The notes below the pieces were generated by a model. It saw only the letters and a list, made by a program, of their open reading frames with translations, was not told the origin of the DNA and did no database searches. A program made the position numbers and the translations under genes. Shown in pieces: positions 4,051-28,579 of a DNA stretch of 64,000 nt; the first letter of the stretch is position 1, and every line of letters begins with the position of its first letter. This DNA comes from a virus: IMG/VR virus record IMGVR_UViG_3300028800_000064, positions 1 through 64,000 of that record, one strand, 5' to 3'.

Positions 4051-5646
4051 ATGAGCAAAAATACCACGTACGGGAAAGACGCCCGCACTGCACTGCTGAA
4101 AGGTGTGGATTTTTTAGTGGACGCGGTGGCATTAACGGAAGGTCCTCGCGGACGCAATTGCATCCTGGGGCAGCGAGCTTTGGGCCAAACTCCGAAGTGT
4201 ACGCGCGACGGAGTGACGGTGGCGAACTACGTGAACCCATCGGACCCAACGCAGCAACTCGGGGCCGATCTCATCCGAGAGGCGTGCCAGAAGACTGACA
4301 ACAACGTGGGCGACGGCACCACCTGCACTGCTGTTCTCTCTCGCGCCATGATTCATGCCGGGTTTGATTTGATCGAGAAAGGTGCGAACCCCATGGCCAT
4401 GGAGCGCGGCATCCGCAAGGCCGTGGATATTGTGACCAAGTGTTTGCAAGCCCAGTCTGTCAAAGTCTCCGAAAAGAAAATTTTCCAAGTGGCGACTGTC
4501 TCCGCTCACGGAGATGAGGAGATCGGCAAACTGGTTGCAGAAGCGGTGAATGCTGCGGGCAAAGATGGAATCGTGACGGCAGAGCCTTCGTCCACATCAG
4601 CCACCTATGTTGAGTCGGTCGCCGGTATCGAGCTGCCGAAGTCCAGCTTGATCTCGCCCGTCTTTATGACGCATCCTGAATCCATGGTGGCGGAATTGCA
4701 CGACTGCCGCATTCTTTTGTGGGAGGGTGTGATCGCTACCGCGAAGTCCATTATCCCGCTACTCAAACAGGTGCATGAATTGCAAGGGCAACCGCTGCTG
4801 ATCGTGGCGGGCGGATACGAAGCTGAAGTGCTGGCATGTATCATCAAAAACAAAACGAGTCTGGCTCTGCCGTTGAACGCTGTGCGCATGGAAGCTTATG
4901 GTGAACGCCGCAAGGAAGTGATGCGCGACATCGCGGCGCTGATCGGCGGCAAGGCCTACACCGAAGATATGGGGTTGAAGATCGACAGCGTCAAGATCGA
5001 TCAGTTGGGGAAGGCGCGCAAGGTCATTACGTCAATGTCCAAAACCCAGATCATTGGCGGGAATGGCAATCAAGAGGAACTGGCCGGGCGAGTGAGCTTT
5101 ATTCGCACCGCCATGGATGCAGCGGCCCCCGTAGAGAAAAGCATCTTCAAAGCTCGTCTCTCCGCACTCTTGGGTGGCATCACGATTCTCAAGGTGGGCG
5201 GCGTGACGGTCACGGAGATGGAAGAGAAGAAAGATCGCGTTGTCGATGCCCTATCGGCAGCCAAGGCGGCTGTGGAGTCGGGCGTCGTTGCTGGTGGCGG
5301 CACAGCTCTGTTGCGCGCGTCGGCAGCTATCCACACGCTGCGGCTCCCGGCAGCAGAGCGTGAGGGATTGGCAGTGGTCTATACCGCCTGTCAGGCCGTG
5401 GTCAAACAGATCGCCCAAAACGCCGGGCTCAATGGCGAGATGATCGTCTCTCAGTTGATGGCATCTCCGGACCTGGGGTATAACGCTCTCACGGATGAGT
5501 TCGAAAACCTTGTGGACTCGGGCATCATCGATCCGGTAGCGGTGGTGGAAGAATCTTTGCGCAATGCTTCGGCAGTAGCCTGCAGCATCCTTACCATGGG
5601 CTGCACGGTGTCCGAAATTCTCCAGGAGGCACCAGCCAATGTCTAA
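4051..5646 (+). CDS. groEL: phage chaperonin GroEL
   Basis: A 531-residue GroEL/Hsp60 (bacterial GroEL is about 548). Ring-forming ATPase that folds proteins in the cytoplasm, probably here capsid or tail proteins. Family marks in order: TEGPRGRN near residue 30, the nucleotide-binding GDGTT at about residue 88, the apical domain in the middle, EKKDRVVDALSAAKAAVESG with VAGGGTALL at about 390-420, and the C-terminal equatorial segment with VVEESLRNASAVACSIL. It lacks the GGM-repeat tail of cellular GroEL and ends QEAPANV. It is followed by groES with an 8-base overlap, the reverse of the usual bacterial order. Confidence 0.95.
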   Translation: MSKNTTYGKDARTALLKGVDFLVDAVALTEGPRGRNCILGQRALGQTPKCTRDGVTVANYVNPSDPTQQLGADLIREACQKTDNNVGDGTTCTAVLSRAMIHAGFDLIEKGANPMAMERGIRKAVDIVTKCLQAQSVKVSEKKIFQVATVSAHGDEEIGKLVAEAVNAAGKDGIVTAEPSSTSATYVESVAGIELPKSSLISPVFMTHPESMVAELHDCRILLWEGVIATAKSIIPLLKQVHELQGQPLLIVAGGYEAEVLACIIKNKTSLALPLNAVRMEAYGERRKEVMRDIAALIGGKAYTEDMGLKIDSVKIDQLGKARKVITSMSKTQIIGGNGNQEELAGRVSFIRTAMDAAAPVEKSIFKARLSALLGGITILKVGGVTVTEMEEKKDRVVDALSAAKAAVESGVVAGGGTALLRASAAIHTLRLPAAEREGLAVVYTACQAVVKQIAQNAGLNGEMIVSQLMASPDLGYNALTDEFENLVDSGIIDPVAVVEESLRNASAVACSILTMGCTVSEILQEAPANV

Positions 5647-5917
5647 GACCGTGCTGCAACCAGCAAGCGACCACATCTTGGCGGTCGATAATCCGCGAGA
5701 GACCACTATCGATGGAATTTCCCTGCCCGACAACGTGCGCCAGCAGGAGATGGTGTTTGGTACGGTGGTGTTCATAGGACCTGATGTGGATTCAACCAGC
5801 GTCCGAGACCGGATTTGTTACGGGCCGTACGCTGGGAAGACCGTGGTGATTGACGGGATCGAATTTCGGTTGTTGAAGGAAGAACAGATCGAAGGATACA
5901 TTCGAGAGACAGAATAA
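5639..5917 (+). CDS. groES: phage co-chaperonin GroES
   Basis: A 92-residue co-chaperonin, close to the usual 95-100. It caps the GroEL ring. The Cpn10 pattern is visible: a start like LQPASDHILA, a mobile-loop region with GISLPDN in place of the usual GGIVLP, then GTVVFIGP and a strand near YAGKTVVIDGIEFRLLKEEQI. It overlaps groEL by 8 bases and ends with a TAATG overlap onto the small-terminase-like gene, so chaperonins and packaging genes share one operon. Confidence 0.9.
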   Translation: MSKTVLQPASDHILAVDNPRETTIDGISLPDNVRQQEMVFGTVVFIGPDVDSTSVRDRICYGPYAGKTVVIDGIEFRLLKEEQIEGYIRETE

Positions 5918-6417
5918 TGACTGAGAATCTACGCATGCCGCTGGAGGAGTTACAAAACACTCCGGAGTACCAGAAGCTTACCCAGAAACAACGCCTGTTT
6001 GTCGCTACCTACTGCGAGGGCGGGCGAGTCTCTGGGACGTACGACCCCGTGTGGGCAACAAATACAGCGTATGCGTGCAAGAACCTAGAAGTGGCTCGCA
6101 TCATGTCGTACGCGCTCATGGCCAACATTCGAATCATCGCGGTGCTCAACCGCCACTTCAATACCGCGCCGATTGAAGAATTTCTCTTGCAACTGGACCG
6201 CGCCATCCGCAATAAGAAACTCACCGTAGCTCAGATTCAGGCCCTGCGCCTGAAGTGCGAGATTTTGGGATTCGCGAACCGGCTTCCCGACGTGAATCAT
6301 GTTGGAGTCATTCCTCCGGATGTGGTAGAGGCCGAGCGCGCCGCGCGCCGCGCCAAGCGCAAAAAGGTTGAGAAACCCGCCCAACCCGCTCCCAAGTCTC
6401 AATACGACGAATATTAA
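5917..6417 (+). CDS. terminase small subunit-like protein
   Basis: A 166-residue protein whose N-terminal half has the pattern of small terminase subunits: LTQKQRLFVATYCEGG, then ATNTAYACKNLEVARIMSYA, where this family has its helix-turn-helix, followed by helical multimerisation segments. The C-terminus is basic and Ala/Arg rich (AERAARRAKRKKVEK). It would recognise phage DNA and regulate the large terminase at 9264. The two subunits are separated here by 2.8 kb of other genes, which is unusual but not rare. The function rests on pattern alone. Confidence 0.65.
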   Translation: MTENLRMPLEELQNTPEYQKLTQKQRLFVATYCEGGRVSGTYDPVWATNTAYACKNLEVARIMSYALMANIRIIAVLNRHFNTAPIEEFLLQLDRAIRNKKLTVAQIQALRLKCEILGFANRLPDVNHVGVIPPDVVEAERAARRAKRKKVEKPAQPAPKSQYDEY

Positions 6418-6434
6418 GACTTCGTTTTCCATTG
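6416..6434 (+). promoter_or_regulatory. late-promoter motif, copy E
   Basis: AAGACTT at 6416-6422, six bases, CCATTG at 6429-6434, then TATGGACTCCCTAATG. It overlaps the end of the small-terminase-like gene and stands just ahead of the next start. The trailing TTGTATGGACTC is shared with copy K before the capsid gene. Confidence 0.5.
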
Positions 6435-6447
6435 TATGGACTCCCTA

Positions 6448-6762
6448 ATGATCCCCGGTACGGGGGCACTCGGGCAACCTCGCCTGGGCTCTATCTATGA
6501 TGAGACTGGCACGCCTGCCTCTGGGTATGCCGAAGGAGGACCATATCACTGCGAAGATTGCGTTCACAAGCCTGCAATGGATGTCCCTTTCTGCATTCAT
6601 CCTCGCGTTGTTGGTGATCCTGAATTGCAAGATCGGCTTGTCTCGATTGATGGGCGGCCTGCGGTCAAGATTTGCATGGATCGTGGTTGCTGTCGCTTTG
6701 TGCGCCAGCCAGCTAAGACTGAAGATACGCCAAAGGAAGTTCGCCATGGCGAAGATGAGTAA
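6448..6762 (+). CDS. cysteine-rich hypothetical protein
   Basis: A 104-residue protein. I chose ATG 6448 over the in-frame ATG 6436 because 6436 lies inside the promoter motif and 6448 keeps the same spacing to GGACTC as the portal gene has. It has two cysteine clusters, HCEDCVHKP with FCIHP, and CMDRGCCRF, which together could bind a metal. Similar short Cys/His proteins occur among phage packaging genes. Function unknown. Confidence 0.6.
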   Translation: MIPGTGALGQPRLGSIYDETGTPASGYAEGGPYHCEDCVHKPAMDVPFCIHPRVVGDPELQDRLVSIDGRPAVKICMDRGCCRFVRQPAKTEDTPKEVRHGEDE

Positions 6763-6907
6763 AGACGCCGCGTTCCACGAAGTATTCACCGACAAACCAA
6801 GCACTGTCGATACCAGCAAGTCGGCCAGTGGACAAAGAAAACAGATGATCGCCATCGCGCTTTCGAAGGCGGGATTGTCTAGGCCTGGTAAGAAAGCCGC
6901 AAAATAA
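6746..6907 (+). CDS. small basic phage protein, DUF6496-like
   Basis: A 53-residue protein from ATG 6746, behind AAAGGAAG, overlapping the previous gene by 17 bases. The segment RKQMIAIALSKAGLSRPGKK matches the short phage family (DUF6496-type) that has an R(K/Q)AIAIALSEA core and a basic tail. These proteins are found beside head genes; their role is not known. Confidence 0.6.
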   Translation: MAKMSKDAAFHEVFTDKPSTVDTSKSASGQRKQMIAIALSKAGLSRPGKKAAK

Positions 6908-17507: not shown

Positions 17508-17714
17508 ATGGCTAAAATTACACCCGTTGTTCCGGCAGGCACGGCGTCTCTGCCATCGGCTCTCATCACGCCAGGATGGCCTTTGGCGACCGTTGCCGCA
17601 TCGAACCCGATAGCGGGCAGTGCTGGAACGTCTCCGACGCCGAATTCAACCGACGCTTCGCTGCTGTATAGTGCCGAAGTGCAATCCGGCCACACGAGCG
17701 ATAGCGTAGCGTAA
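17508..17714 (+). CDS. small Ala/Pro/Ser-rich protein
   Basis: A 68-residue protein from ATG 17508 behind AAGGAGGG (an in-frame TTG at 17502 lies too near the ribosome site). The sequence is low complexity (VVPAGTASLPSALITPGWPL). It pairs with the preceding gene in spacing and ribosome-site quality. Perhaps a minor structural protein. A structured RNA follows at once. Confidence 0.55.
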   Translation: MAKITPVVPAGTASLPSALITPGWPLATVAASNPIAGSAGTSPTPNSTDASLLYSAEVQSGHTSDSVA

Positions 17715-17718
17715 CGAG

Positions 17719-17802
17719 ATGGGCGTAAGCCCAAAGGGGTATAACCCCACGGATGGCGCGCGGCGGCATGAATAGGCCATAGGAAGCCGGGCCGCCGTGC
17801 AG
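17719..17802 (+). ncRNA. structured non-coding RNA with three hairpins
   Basis: Directly after the stop at 17714 lie three consecutive hairpins: GGGC-GTAA-GCCC (17721-17732, a GNRA tetraloop), GGGG-TATAA-CCCC (17736-17748), and a 10-base-pair stem GCGCGGCGGC (17758-17767) with GCCGCCGTGC (17791-17800) enclosing a 23-base internal part that can fold further. No T run follows, so it is not an ordinary terminator. It may be a processing element for the downstream tRNAs, an mRNA 3'-end stabiliser or an independent RNA. I match it to no known class. Confidence 0.5.
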
Positions 17803-17817
17803 ACCATCAAAACTTGT

Positions 17818-17894
17818 CGCGGAGTGGCGCAGCTTGGTAGCGCGTCGGTCTCATACACCGAAGGTCGTGAGTTCAAATCTCACCTCCGCAACCA
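17818..17894 (+). tRNA. tRNA-Met(CAT), initiator-like
   Basis: A 77-base cloverleaf including an encoded CCA. The acceptor strands are CGCGGAG and CTCCGCA, giving a C1-A72 mismatch, the hallmark of bacterial initiator tRNA. The anticodon loop is CTCATAC, and the T-arm GTGAG-TTCAAAT-CTCAC is intact. Over most of its length it resembles E. coli tRNA-fMet. The anticodon stem ends GGT/ACC, so it lacks one of the three G-C pairs of classical initiators. It would support initiation on phage mRNAs if it is formylated. Confidence 0.85.
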
Positions 17895-17903
17895 AATTTC
17901 TAA

Positions 17904-17978
17904 GCGGGTTTGGCCGAGTGGCAAGGCGGCGGTCTTCCAAACCGCTTTTCGCGAGTTCAAATCTCGCAGCCCGCTCCA
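17904..17978 (+). tRNA. tRNA-Gly(TCC)
   Basis: A 75-base cloverleaf with encoded CCA. Acceptor GCGGGTT pairs with AGCCCGC (one G-T). The discriminator is T, as is usual for bacterial tRNA-Gly. The anticodon stem-loop is GCGGT-CTTCCAA-ACCGC, reading UCC, and the T-arm is GCGAG-TTCAAAT-CTCGC. It starts nine bases after tRNA-Met and would decode GGA and GGG. Confidence 0.9.
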
Positions 17979-17988
17979 AAGTTTTGGC

Positions 17989-18017
17989 TTGACTATTTTT
18001 CGTGAGAGACGTAAACT
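17989..18017 (+). promoter_or_regulatory. sigma-70-like promoter of the first permuted tRNA-like unit
   Basis: TTGACT at 17989-17994 and TAAACT at 18012-18017 with a 17-base spacer. The expected start, about 18024, falls on the first base of the 3' anticodon strand of the unit downstream. This promoter sits inside the tRNA cluster, immediately behind tRNA-Gly. Confidence 0.65.
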
Positions 18018-18023
18018 GAAATT

Positions 18024-18093
18024 AGCTGGTGATGGAGGTTCGAATCCTCTCCCACAACAGCATTTGTGGGTCGTCTAACGGTAGGACACAGCA
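18024..18093 (+). tRNA. candidate circularly permuted tRNA, unit 1
   Basis: The halves are in reverse order. First the 3' half: AGCTG (18024-18028), variable GTGAT, T-arm GGAGG-TTCGAAT-CCTCT (18034-18050), acceptor 3' strand CCCACAA (18051-18057). After a six-base linker CAGCAT comes the 5' half: acceptor TTGTGGG (18064-18070, 7 of 7 pairs with CCCACAA), TC, D-arm GTCT-AACGGTA-GGAC (18073-18087), A, and CAGCA (18089-18093), of which four of five bases pair with AGCTG. No normal-order partner strand exists on either side. The anticodon loop is not encoded between the halves, and no CCA is encoded. It has its own promoter. Confidence 0.55.
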
Positions 18094-18179
18094 ACGGGGA
18101 GATGTGGGTTCGAATCCCATCCGAGCCGGATGTTTTCGGCCCGGTCGTATAACGGATATTGCGCCCTTTGATTTTTTTT
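18094..18179 (+). tRNA. candidate circularly permuted tRNA, unit 2
   Basis: It abuts unit 1. 3' half: ACGGG (18094-18098), variable GAGAT, T-arm GTGGG-TTCGAAT-CCCAT (18104-18120), acceptor CCGAGCC (18121-18127). A ten-base linker follows, then the 5' half: acceptor GGCCCGG (18138-18144, six of seven pairs with CCGAGCC), TC, a D-arm with GTATAACGG, and CCCTT (18164-18168), where four of five bases pair with ACGGG. The T run TTTGATTTTTTTTC at 18167-18180 may end the transcript. The D- and anticodon stems are weaker than in the other units, and an alternative loop CTTTGAT can be drawn at 18166-18172, so this unit may be degenerate. Confidence 0.45.
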
Positions 18180-18180
18180 C

Positions 18181-18209
18181 TTGACCGCCAGCTTGATTGG
18201 TGGTATAGT
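18181..18209 (+). promoter_or_regulatory. sigma-70-like promoter of the third permuted unit
   Basis: TTGACC at 18181-18186 and TATAGT at 18204-18209 with a 17-base spacer. It begins right after the T run that ends unit 2. The start near 18216 lies just before the 3' anticodon strand of unit 3. Confidence 0.7.
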
Positions 18210-18215
18210 GAGTGC

Positions 18216-18331
18216 GTGGGTGGCAACGCGGGTTCGAATCCCGCACGCTTGCGGTTCTTATAATCCGCGCCACTGGGCGGGATTATGAGGGAGCGTTCGT
18301 CTAGCCAGGGAAGGACTCCACCCTGATTTTT
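18216..18331 (+). tRNA. candidate circularly permuted tRNA, unit 3
   Basis: The best-formed unit. 3' half: GGTGG (18219-18223), CAAC, T-arm GCGGG-TTCGAAT-CCCGC (18228-18244), acceptor ACGCTTG (18245-18251). The 38-base linker holds an 11-base-pair hairpin (ATAATCC and CGCC with GGCG and GGATTAT, 18260-18286). 5' half: acceptor GGAGCGT (18290-18296, six of seven pairs with one G-T), D-arm GTCT...GGAC (18299-18316), and CCACC (18318-18322), which pairs perfectly with GGTGG about 100 bases upstream. CTGATTTTTTC follows. If CTGAT is the start of the anticodon loop, the anticodon would be GAT (Ile). No CCA is encoded. Confidence 0.6.
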
Positions 18332-18332
18332 T
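18306..18332 (+). terminator. terminator at the end of permuted unit 3
   Basis: CAGGG (18306-18310) can pair with CCCTG (18321-18325) over a ten-base loop, followed by ATTTTTTC. This stem would compete with the D-arm and anticodon stem of the tRNA fold, so termination and tRNA folding use the same bases. Confidence 0.5.
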
Positions 18333-18355
18333 CTCGATAGAATAAGGAAAGCATC

Positions 18356-18766
18356 ATGCTAAAAACAGACAAACCAGTTTCTGCTACGCCAGGAACAAGC
18401 ACCAGCACTGGCGGAGCCACTGCAACTCGGAACACCGGAGCGGCAACAGGCGGCGCAGTGACTATCACCATCTCCGGATCAAGCAGCACTGGTACTAGCA
18501 CTGAGACTGCCACTACCACGGGAGCTGGCGCAGGAAAAGGTGCATCAAAGAAACCAGGCAAAGACACAGGAAGCAAGCCTGATACGGGCGACAAACGGCC
18601 CCACGTTTACAATATCACCGTGAACTCGACGGGCAAGAGTGGAGATGCGATTGATGGGGATCGCGGCAATCAAACGCATGGTGCCGCCGAAGCGAAAAAA
18701 GCGCAGACGATGCGCAAGGGGCTCAGTGGTTTGAAAAAGGCGAGCCCAAAGAGTTTGCCCGAATAA
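18356..18766 (+). CDS. Ser/Thr/Gly-rich low-complexity protein
   Basis: A 136-residue protein behind AAGGAAAG. Residues 1-60 are almost only Ser, Thr, Gly and Ala, followed by a basic region (KGASKKPGKDTGSKPD) and a helical Lys-rich end. It is probably disordered and may belong to the virion. Its last codons and TAA stop (18764-18766) lie inside the 5' acceptor strand of tRNA-Thr, an unusual overlap of ten bases. Confidence 0.55.
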   Translation: MLKTDKPVSATPGTSTSTGGATATRNTGAATGGAVTITISGSSSTGTSTETATTTGAGAGKGASKKPGKDTGSKPDTGDKRPHVYNITVNSTGKSGDAIDGDRGNQTHGAAEAKKAQTMRKGLSGLKKASPKSLPE

Positions 18767-18831
18767 CTCAGCGGCAGAGTCGCCGATCTGTAATCGGCCA
18801 GTCGGTGGTTCGAATCCATCTTCGGGCTCCA
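18757..18831 (+). tRNA. tRNA-Thr(TGT) with C at position 33
   Basis: A 75-base cloverleaf with encoded CCA. The acceptor GCCCGAA/TTCGGGC is perfect, the D-arm is ACTC...GAGT, the anticodon stem-loop is GCCGA-TCTGTAA-TCGGC, and the T-arm is GGTGG-TTCGAAT-CCATC. The anticodon reads UGU (Thr). Position 33 is C instead of the nearly universal U, and 32 is T. The 5' end overlaps the stop of the upstream gene. Confidence 0.8.
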
Positions 18832-18844
18832 AATCGAGAGAGCA

Positions 18845-19459
18845 ATGCTGAACATGACCCCTTCGCGGGAACGAATCGGATATCTGATACGGCATGGTGA
18901 ACTCAAAAACATGCACGTTTGGGATGGATGGGGCGATTTCGAGCTGAGCGAGGAAGGCAAGTTCCAGGCCGAGAAAGCCGCCCAATGGCTTTCTTTTGAA
19001 CGCCTTGGGCGAGCTATTTCTTCGGATATCCCGCGCACGATTCAAACAGCGCAGTACACTTTGGACACCGGGTGCATCTCCTGTCCCTTTCTATATACCG
19101 ATCCAAACCTCCGTCCGTGGATGGTTGCCGACTACACCGGCCAAGAAAAGACGCCGGAGCGGATCGCGTCGTTTCAAAAGTACATGGATGATCCTGCTCT
19201 GGTGATCCCTGGGGGAGAGAGCCAAGATCAGCTCAACGACCGTATCCAGGTGATTTTTCAGTATCTTGCAACCCCGTACGACGCCAAACCCACGGCCTTT
19301 TTCATCCACAACTCCGTGATAAAATCTCTGCTGCAGAAGATGCACATCAAGCAGGCGGTTGCACCGGGCGGTATCATCGCCATTGACATGGATGAGAAGG
19401 GTGAGATGTACTTCGAAGTCGTCCTTGGGCAAGTCGAGGAAGAACAGGGAGTTAGCTAA
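18845..19459 (+). CDS. histidine phosphatase family protein
   Basis: A 204-residue member of the phosphoglycerate-mutase-like (histidine phosphatase) family. The catalytic RHG appears as LIRHGEL near residue 15, a second arginine in SSDIPRTIQTA near 60, the acid in GGESQDQL near 122, and the second histidine in FFIHNSV near 155. The substrate is not evident; small phosphorylated metabolites or nucleotides are possible. Phage members of this family are uncommon. ATG 18854 is an alternative start. It precedes the polyvalent-protein operon. Confidence 0.75.
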   Translation: MLNMTPSRERIGYLIRHGELKNMHVWDGWGDFELSEEGKFQAEKAAQWLSFERLGRAISSDIPRTIQTAQYTLDTGCISCPFLYTDPNLRPWMVADYTGQEKTPERIASFQKYMDDPALVIPGGESQDQLNDRIQVIFQYLATPYDAKPTAFFIHNSVIKSLLQKMHIKQAVAPGGIIAIDMDEKGEMYFEVVLGQVEEEQGVS

Positions 19460-27562: not shown

Positions 27563-28579
27563 ATGAGCAGCAGAGAAGAGAACTCCGCCAGTTTGGCGGA
27601 AGTCTTGAGCGGAATTGAAAAGCAGCATGGCAAGGGTTCGGTCATGATGTTGGGCAGCAAAGAGTTCGTGCCCATAGAAGTGATCCCCACAGGTTCTCTG
27701 GCCCTGGATATCGCTCTTGGCGTCGGCGGCCTGCCTCGCGGGCGCGTGATCGAAATCTACGGCCCAGAATCCGGCGGCAAGACAACCCTGGCGCTCCAGG
27801 TCATCGCACAAGCGCAAAAACTGGGCGGCAAAGCCGCAGTGATCGACGCCGAACACGCCCTCGATCCTATCTATGCCCGCAAGCTGGGTGTGGATGTGGA
27901 CCACCTTGTAGTCTCTCAACCCGATAACGGCGAACAAGCTCTGGAGATCGCAGAGTCTTTGGTCGAATCCGGCAAGATGAGCGTCGTTCTCATTGATTCG
28001 GTGGCGGCGCTCGTTCCACGCGCAGAGCTTGAAGGCGACATGGGTGATCCGCAGATGGGCCTGCAGGCGCGGCTCATGTCTCAGGCGCTGCGCAAGCTAA
28101 CCGGCAAGACCAATCGCACGCACACCGTTGTGATTTTCATCAACCAGATTCGCGAAAAGATCGGCGTGATGTTCGGGAGCCCCGAAACCACCACGGGCGG
28201 GCGCGCGTTGAAGTTTTATGCCTCTGTTCGGTTGGATATTCGCAAAACTCAACTCATCAAGGAAGGGGACAGCGTGGTCGGCGCGGAGACTCGGATCAAA
28301 GTTGTAAAAAACAAAGTCGCCAGCCCATTTCGTGAGGCGGAAGTGCGAATTCTCTACGGTCACGGCATCTCGGGCGAGTCCGATCTGTTGAAAGTGGGTG
28401 AGCTGTACCCCGAGAAGATTGCACAAAAGGTTATCGAGCGCAGCGGTACATGGTTTTCGTACAAGGGTGAGCGGTTGGGTCAGGGTTTCGAAAACGCTCG
28501 CTTGTTTCTAGTTAATCATCCAGAAGTGGCAGCCAAGATTGACGCCGAATTGCGGACTCTAATTTTCAAATTGAGGTGA
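27563..28579 (+). CDS. recA: RecA recombinase
   Basis: A 338-residue RecA, near full length (E. coli 353). The Walker A is [10 protein letters not shown] (about residue 68), with Gly where most RecAs have Ser. [18 protein letters not shown], the Walker [13 protein letters not shown] near 140, loop L1 with [21 protein letters not shown]2 with [20 protein letters not shown], and the C-terminal domain are all present. It forms filaments on single-stranded DNA for strand exchange and repair. Phage RecA close to an ERF annealing protein and SSB makes a complete recombination set. Confidence 0.95.

What the first reader, a model, noticed from the sequence alone, without database searches (positions are those of the whole stretch)
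18024..18331. Three tandem circularly permuted tRNA-like genes
Seen: three units in which a T-arm plus 3' acceptor strand comes before a 5' acceptor strand plus D-arm. The acceptor strands pair across a linker (unit 1: 7/7; unit 2: 6/7; unit 3: 6/7 with one G-T). In unit 3 the anticodon strands CCACC (18318-18322) and GGTGG (18219-18223) pair perfectly although about 100 bases apart; in units 1 and 2 four of five bases pair. None of the strands has a partner in normal order. Known: permuted tRNA genes are described from red and green algae and some archaea; I know of no bacteriophage example. Inferred: precursors would be joined at the anticodon end and cut at the linker; alternatively they are tRNA mimics with an open anticodon.
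Basis: partly seen in the sequence, partly recalled or inferred. Interest (0 to 1): 0.93.

Follow-up and report, generated by a model that had tools for sequence, protein, structure and literature searches.

The report
Phage-encoded tRNA mimics in permuted order
A phage carries three small RNA genes that fold like a transfer RNA with its two halves swapped and no working anticodon; they look like stripped-down relatives of the bacterial YrlA 'Y RNAs', and following them up showed that permuted tRNA genes, some with real anticodons, are common in phages.

Summary
At 18024-18331 three units have T-arm and 3' acceptor strand before 5' acceptor strand and D-arm. A permuted-tRNA covariance model trained only on rotated ordinary tRNAs ranks units 1 and 2 first in the window; unit 3 folds by energy alone into the permuted cloverleaf. 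Cognate acceptor strands pair 7/7, 6/7, 6/7; swapped ones 1-4/7. The reading as precursors of ligated tRNAs is not supported: no canonical anticodon loop can be rebuilt, unit 1 abuts unit 2 without a loop, the RNA ends close as a helix (promoter just before the 3' halves of units 1 and 3, T-tract just after the 5' halves of units 2 and 3), and no RNA ligase was found in the 97-kb record. The closest known kind is the tRNA-mimic module of bacterial YrlA, whose genuine members score 50-56 bits with the same model. The window units fail YrlA's gathering score, lack its Rsr-binding stem and have no Ro60 gene in the record: a minimal, YrlA-like, phage-borne variant. A similar unit in another phage lies 3.9 kb from a Ro60/TROVE gene. 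Separately, about 40 other phage elements are permuted tRNAs with strong covariation, about half with canonical anticodon arms; I found no published description.

The parts
17989..18017 (+). sigma-70-like promoter TTGACT-17-TAAACT, 6 nt upstream of the 3' half of unit 1
   Evidence: 9 of 12 matches; one of only two promoter-like sites found in 17600-18900 (expected 0.9 by shuffling)
18024..18058 (+). unit 1, 3' half: anticodon-stem strand AGCTG, variable GTGAT, T-arm, 3' acceptor strand CCCACAA, discriminator C
   Evidence: R1 37.7 bits for 18024-18093
18064..18093 (+). unit 1, 5' half: acceptor strand TTGTGGG, TC, D-arm GTCTAACGGTAGGAC, A, CAGCA
   Evidence: folds as permuted cloverleaf
18094..18128 (+). 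unit 2, 3' half, directly abutting unit 1
   Evidence: R1 34.6 bits for 18094-18168
18138..18168 (+). unit 2, 5' half (weak D-arm, imperfect anticodon stem)
18172..18179 (+). run of 8 T after unit 2: putative end of the unit 1+2 transcript
   Evidence: sequence; termination is inferred
18181..18209 (+). promoter TTGACC-17-TATAGT with TG before the -10, upstream of unit 3; the same promoter type precedes other genes in relatives (e.g. L025 7479-7508)
18218..18252 (+). unit 3, 3' half: GGGTGG, CAAC, T-arm, ACGCTTG, discriminator C
18253..18289 (+). unit 3 linker, folds as a hairpin that extends the acceptor stem
   Evidence: MFE structure
18290..18323 (+). unit 3, 5' half: GGAGCGT, TC, D-arm, T, CCACCC (6 bp with GGGTGG)
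18327..18332 (+). run of 6 T after unit 3: putative terminator, with the closing helix as its stem
   Evidence: function inferred

Best explanation
The three units are phage-encoded tRNA-mimic small RNAs: minimal, YrlA-like modules made as two short transcripts (units 1+2, about 157 nt; unit 3, about 115 nt). RNA polymerase starts just upstream of the 3' half and stops at a T-tract just after the 5' half, so the two RNA ends meet where a tRNA has its anticodon arm and close as a short helix. The rest folds as T-arm, acceptor hairpin and D-arm, which gives a tRNA elbow without an anticodon. Shown by computation: sequence anatomy, permuted pairing above chance, fold of units 1 and 3, promoter and T-tract positions, absence of a rebuildable anticodon, similar units in other phages, and that bacterial YrlA RNAs have the same topology. 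Inferred: transcription, termination, and function. The most likely function is a decoy or scaffold that offers a tRNA elbow or acceptor to tRNA-binding proteins (modification enzymes, RNase P, tRNA nucleases or an exonuclease) but cannot be cut at an anticodon or decode.
For: Permuted pairing is specific and above swap controls. Unit 3 folds exactly into the permuted cloverleaf closed by GGGTGG/CCACCC (z -2.3); unit 1 also folds so. Both promoter-like sites of the region lie 6 and 8 nt before a 3' half. The same plan occurs in other phages. L163/L220 has TTGACT..TATAAT, helix GGAGCGGA/TCCATTCC, then TTTTTT (fold z -3.6). L157 has TTGACT..TATAAT. L036 is a relative with a unit at the same place, between tRNA-Gly and tRNA-Thr; its closing helix is GGGAAG/CTTCCC where unit 3 has GGGTGG/CCACCC, i.e. 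two compensatory pair changes. No canonical anticodon arm can be rebuilt for five such units. Rfam's best full-length non-tRNA family for unit 3 is YrlA, weakly (20.7 bits), and likewise for L163 (30.4 bits) and L157 (22.7 bits). Two tandem bacterial YrlA RNAs (74.4 and 67.6 bits) score 55.9 and 50.3 bits with the permuted-tRNA model. The L157 phage encodes a TROVE/Ro60 protein 3.9 kb from its unit. YrlA is described as a 90-150 nt RNA with an end-to-end stem and a tRNA-like D/T/acceptor domain (PMC8394870). Its tRNA-like domain is not cut by the Salmonella anticodon nuclease and was proposed to inhibit it (PMC7790460).
Against: YrlA scores are far below the gathering score of 69, and at a loose threshold weak YrlA hits ring in 13 of 14 control genomes. 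No TROVE gene was found in the 97-kb record and there is no long basal stem. Unit 2 is degenerate. In L036 the acceptor pairs only 5/7 in register. Only 1 of 59 related contigs found by capsid gene shows such a unit, so conservation is thin. Expression is not shown.
Confidence: 0.58

Rival explanations
1. True circularly permuted tRNA genes: the transcript ends are ligated (by a host or phage RNA ligase), RNase P and 3' processing remove the linker, and a decoding tRNA results.
For: Order of halves and linker lengths (5, 9 and 37 nt) match algal and archaeal permuted genes (1-74 nt; PMC3978253), as do an upstream promoter and a downstream T-stretch. Other phage elements do have rebuildable anticodons.
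Against: No canonical anticodon arm in any unit. No loop sequence between units 1 and 2. Closing helices extend into the loop positions. No ligase match in the record. Pair 1-72 of unit 3 is G-G, and discriminators are C, G and C.
Confidence: 0.13
2. Decaying leftovers of tRNA array rearrangements with no present function.
For: Unit 2 is degenerate; most related phages lack the units; mismatches in acceptor and anticodon stems.
Against: Cognate pairing far above swaps; promoters and T-tracts placed at the same points in unrelated phages; compensatory changes between unit 3 and L036; stable permuted fold of unit 3.
Confidence: 0.2
3. They are canonical YrlA Y RNAs that bind a Ro60 (Rsr) protein of the host and tether it to a nuclease.
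For: Same topology; TROVE gene in the L157 phage.
Against: No Rsr-binding basal stem in the window units, below Rfam gathering score, no TROVE gene in the record; host unknown.
Confidence: 0.09

Closest known systems
YrlA bacterial Y RNA (Rfam RF02553), tRNA-mimic effector module
   Same: T-arm, acceptor hairpin and D-arm in permuted order, closed by a helix of the RNA ends; tandem copies occur (L591: two YrlA in tandem); autonomous small RNA
   Different: Window units lack the long Rsr-binding basal stem and its internal loop, score below the gathering threshold, sit in a phage tRNA cluster, and have no rsr gene in the record
Circularly permuted tRNA genes of red and green algae and Thermofilum
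   Same: 3' half before 5' half, short intervening sequence, upstream promoter and downstream T-stretch
   Different: No rebuildable anticodon; no bulge-helix-bulge motif recognised at the ends (inspection only); bacterial promoter; bacterial virus
Two-piece (permuted) tmRNA
   Same: 3' acceptor/T-arm part precedes 5' acceptor/D-arm part (own knowledge)
   Different: No tag-coding region and no room for one; G3-U70 alanine determinant absent (read from sequence)
Group B permuted phage tRNA elements found here (e.g. L390 2037-2175, L551 7509-7648)
   Same: Permuted tRNA core in phage tRNA clusters
   Different: Enclosed by a covarying 7-bp helix followed by ACAGCAA; many carry canonical anticodon arms; lack the promoter-at-the-end plan

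Membership tests
YrlA / bacterial Y RNA | tRNA-like module of T-arm, acceptor and D-arm in permuted order | tested here: met
   genuine YrlA scores 55.9/50.3 bits with the same model
YrlA / bacterial Y RNA | match to RF02553 at or above gathering score 69 | tested here: not met
   20.7 and 14.7 bits
YrlA / bacterial Y RNA | long basal stem of 5' and 3' ends that binds Rsr/Ro60 | tested here: not met
   closing helix is 4-6 bp only
YrlA / bacterial Y RNA | rsr (TROVE) gene nearby | tested here: inconclusive
   none in the 97-kb record, host unknown; present 3.9 kb from the L157 unit
YrlA / bacterial Y RNA | binding to Rsr and tethering of PNPase | not testable with these tools
   needs biochemistry
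Circularly permuted tRNA genes | 3' half upstream of 5' half with pairing acceptor strands | tested here: met
Circularly permuted tRNA genes | complete anticodon arm after rejoining the halves | tested here: not met
   none of units 1-3 canonical (19 of 37 group B elements are; swap control mean 7.9)
Circularly permuted tRNA genes | bulge-helix-bulge motif and splicing endonuclease/ligase | not tested
   no BHB search was run; no ligase or RtcB match in the record; host machinery unknown
Circularly permuted tRNA genes | charged, functional tRNA in cells | not testable with these tools
   needs RNA from infected cells
Two-piece tmRNA | tag-coding segment upstream of the 3' part | tested here: not met
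   promoter ends 6-8 nt before the 3' half; Rfam evalue search of the region shows no tmRNA

The most novel reading that the evidence does not exclude
Phages carry true circularly permuted tRNA genes. A large group (about 40 elements in the contigs read here) has a covarying enclosing helix, a CAGCAA motif and often a complete anticodon arm that only exists if two fragments are joined within or next to the anticodon stem. Bacterial YrlA RNAs and the window's anticodon-less units would then be reduced members of one continuum of permuted tRNA genes, which implies an undescribed RNA-joining step in bacteria or phages.
Probability: 0.35. Interest if true: 0.93.

Novelty: new variant of a known kind. 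Interest (0 to 1): 0.68.

Why it matters
It extends tRNA mimicry of the YrlA type to small phage RNAs with their own promoter, a plausible counter to host enzymes that act on tRNAs. It also exposes permuted tRNA genes in phages that ARAGORN and Rfam's tRNA model do not call, some in phages closely similar to cultured enterobacterial jumbo phages, so whether bacteria or phages can make a tRNA from swapped halves becomes directly testable.

Tried and rejected
Ordinary tandem tRNAs: rejected, acceptors do not pair in normal order and no normal tRNA is called. R1 hits in normal tandem arrays reach 56 bits (L010), so R1 hits were filtered against ARAGORN calls. A false hit in relatives (L037 13441) was a normal tRNA-Thr. 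Permuted group I intron around the units: none matched in Rfam at gathering level. Units as part of a GOLLD RNA: no match in the window. BLAST of the region against phages gave only ordinary tRNAs. The promoter-plus-T-arm pattern in bacterial genomes gave no convincing permuted unit at the pattern matches themselves. An ACAGCAA at 18088-18094 resembles the group B motif but has no enclosing helix, so it was taken as chance. Key Y RNA papers (Chen 2014; Sim and Wolin 2018) were not held.

Full report
What is there. The window is part of a 97,240-base virus record. Between two ordinary tRNA genes (Met 17818-17894, Gly 17904-17978) and a third (Thr 18757-18831) lie three units in which a T-arm with the 3' acceptor strand comes before the 5' acceptor strand with the D-arm. 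Cognate acceptor strands pair 7/7, 6/7 and 6/7; the six swapped combinations pair 1-4/7. A scanner for permuted tRNAs finds exactly these three in 128 kb of strand sequence, none in 750 kb of shuffled local sequence and one in ten shuffled windows at the same score.

Independent model. I rotated 46 ordinary tRNAs from other loci in silico, aligned them and built covariance model R1. In the window its best hits are unit 1 (37.7 bits) and unit 2 (34.6 bits); the third (32.3 bits) is the junction of the ordinary Met and Gly genes, a caution that tandem tRNAs can score. Unit 3 is missed because of its 37-nt linker, but its transcript folds by energy alone into the permuted cloverleaf with a 6-bp closing helix GGGTGG/CCACCC and a hairpin linker. 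Unit 1 folds likewise; unit 2 does not and is the weakest. When units 1 and 2 are folded as one RNA, the minimum-energy structure is an alternative one.

Transcription signals. The only two promoter-like sites in 17600-18900 are TTGACT-17-TAAACT, ending 6 nt before the 3' half of unit 1, and TTGACC-17-TATAGT, ending 8 nt before that of unit 3 (0.9 expected by shuffling). T-tracts follow the 5' halves of units 2 (8 T) and 3 (6 T). So two transcripts are predicted, each beginning and ending where the anticodon arm of a tRNA would be. Start and stop are inferred, not measured.

Relatives. A search with the capsid gene gave 59 related contigs. Many keep tRNA genes at this place, but only L036 has a comparable unit, between tRNA-Gly and tRNA-Thr, with its own TTGACA-17-TATAAT promoter and a closing helix GGGAAG/CTTCCC where unit 3 has GGGTGG/CCACCC: two compensatory pair changes, but a poorer acceptor. 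A pattern scan of viral contigs (promoter followed at once by a T-arm) found the same plan in unrelated phages: L163/L220 and L157. L163 folds with z -3.6 and its closing helix runs straight into TTTTTT.

Not rejoined tRNAs. I asked whether any joining of the two fragments gives a 5/5 anticodon stem with U33 and a purine at 37. None of units 1-3, L036 or L163 does. Units 1 and 2 have no nucleotides for a loop between them, and in unit 3, L036 and L163 the loop positions are paired. No RNA ligase or RtcB match was found in the record. This speaks for a tRNA mimic rather than a precursor.

Closest known kind. Rfam at relaxed threshold puts unit 3 (20.7 bits), L163 (30.4 bits) and L157 (22.7 bits) nearest YrlA, far below its gathering score of 69; such weak YrlA hits also occur in most control genomes, so this alone proves little. 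Turning it round is stronger: a genuine tandem pair of bacterial YrlA RNAs scores 55.9 and 50.3 bits with R1, so the YrlA module is itself a permuted tRNA. YrlA is described as an RNA of 90-150 nt with an end-to-end stem and a tRNA-like domain (PMC8394870). Its tRNA-like domain was proposed to inhibit an anticodon nuclease (PMC7790460). Jumbo phages with a TROVE protein are known (PMC7824862), and one prophage YrlA has been listed (PMC8190616). The L157 phage carries a 483-aa TROVE protein 3.9 kb from its unit. The window record has none. I therefore place the units as a minimal, YrlA-like variant, not as YrlA members.

A wider phenomenon. Across viral contigs 22 of 396 orphan T-arms have a complete permuted partner set, against 0.95 expected after swapping. 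A further group (B) of about 40 elements has a 7-bp helix enclosing the permuted tRNA and a CAGCAA motif. In a 30-sequence alignment 21 of 22 predicted pairs, including that helix and the permuted acceptor, show changes on both sides. CAGCAA conservation is partly by selection, because the last scan used it, but L357, L320, L286, L405, L144 and L148 were fetched without it. Of 37 tested, 19 give a canonical anticodon arm on joining, against 7.9 when 5' fragments are swapped. L488 lies in a record similar to Erwinia, Serratia and Cronobacter jumbo phages; in the two deposited records I opened, the annotation lists neighbouring ordinary tRNAs but not these elements. Eight literature searches found no report of permuted tRNA genes in phages; the library lacks most subscription papers and preprints.

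Verdict. The window's units are best explained as phage tRNA-mimic RNAs of YrlA-like architecture with unknown partner; function is inferred. The more novel finding, permuted tRNA genes with real anticodons in phages, lies outside the window.

Noticed in passing
L390:2037-2175, L489:1832-1968, L543:5333-5475, L551:7509-7648, L527:299-439 and about 35 more: Group B: circularly permuted tRNAs in phages enclosed by a covarying 7-bp helix plus ACAGCAA, many with canonical anticodon arms (TCT, GAT, GAA, TGT, GTC); the junction varies from about 26/27 to the anticodon loop.
   Followed up: partly
L583 (Cronobacter phage GAP32) 1611-1680, 1945-2020, 2156-2220: The same helix plus CAGCAA element also occurs between genes without any tRNA inside, so it may be a general RNA element into which permuted tRNAs are built.
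   Followed up: no
L591 1383-1459 (- strand): The second of two tandem bacterial YrlA RNAs contains a complete permuted tRNA-Arg(UCU), with anticodon loop CTTCTAA and CCA, on joining.
   Followed up: partly
L147:13832-14347: A permuted tRNA (R1 55.3 bits) lies inside a GOLLD RNA match; tRNAs in the GOLLD linker are mentioned in PMC12286853, but not permuted ones.
   Followed up: no
L586:1465-1559 and 5424-6875: Phage with a YrlA-like unit behind its own promoter and a TROVE/Ro60 protein gene 3.9 kb away.
   Followed up: partly
L160:2400-2560 and L172:4450-4600 (- strand): Permuted tRNAs sharing another conserved upstream element (ACACAACTTAAT..) that pairs with the downstream flank; a third type of surrounding.
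   Followed up: no
L036:11500-11690, L036:11925-12030, L037:13010-13400, L009:9400-9495: Relatives carry other promoter-driven, apparently structured small RNAs at the same place between tRNA genes; no Rfam match for L036 and L037, L009 not scanned.
   Followed up: no
L042:13580-13770: A perfect inverted repeat of about 32 nt (CAATATTGGGGAATTATATAGATGACTCCCTT) with its arms about 120 nt apart, between tRNA genes.
   Followed up: no
window 4051-5646 and 27563-28579: ORFs that look like a GroEL-type chaperonin and RecA, unusual cargo for a phage of about 97 kb (by reading, not tested).
   Followed up: no
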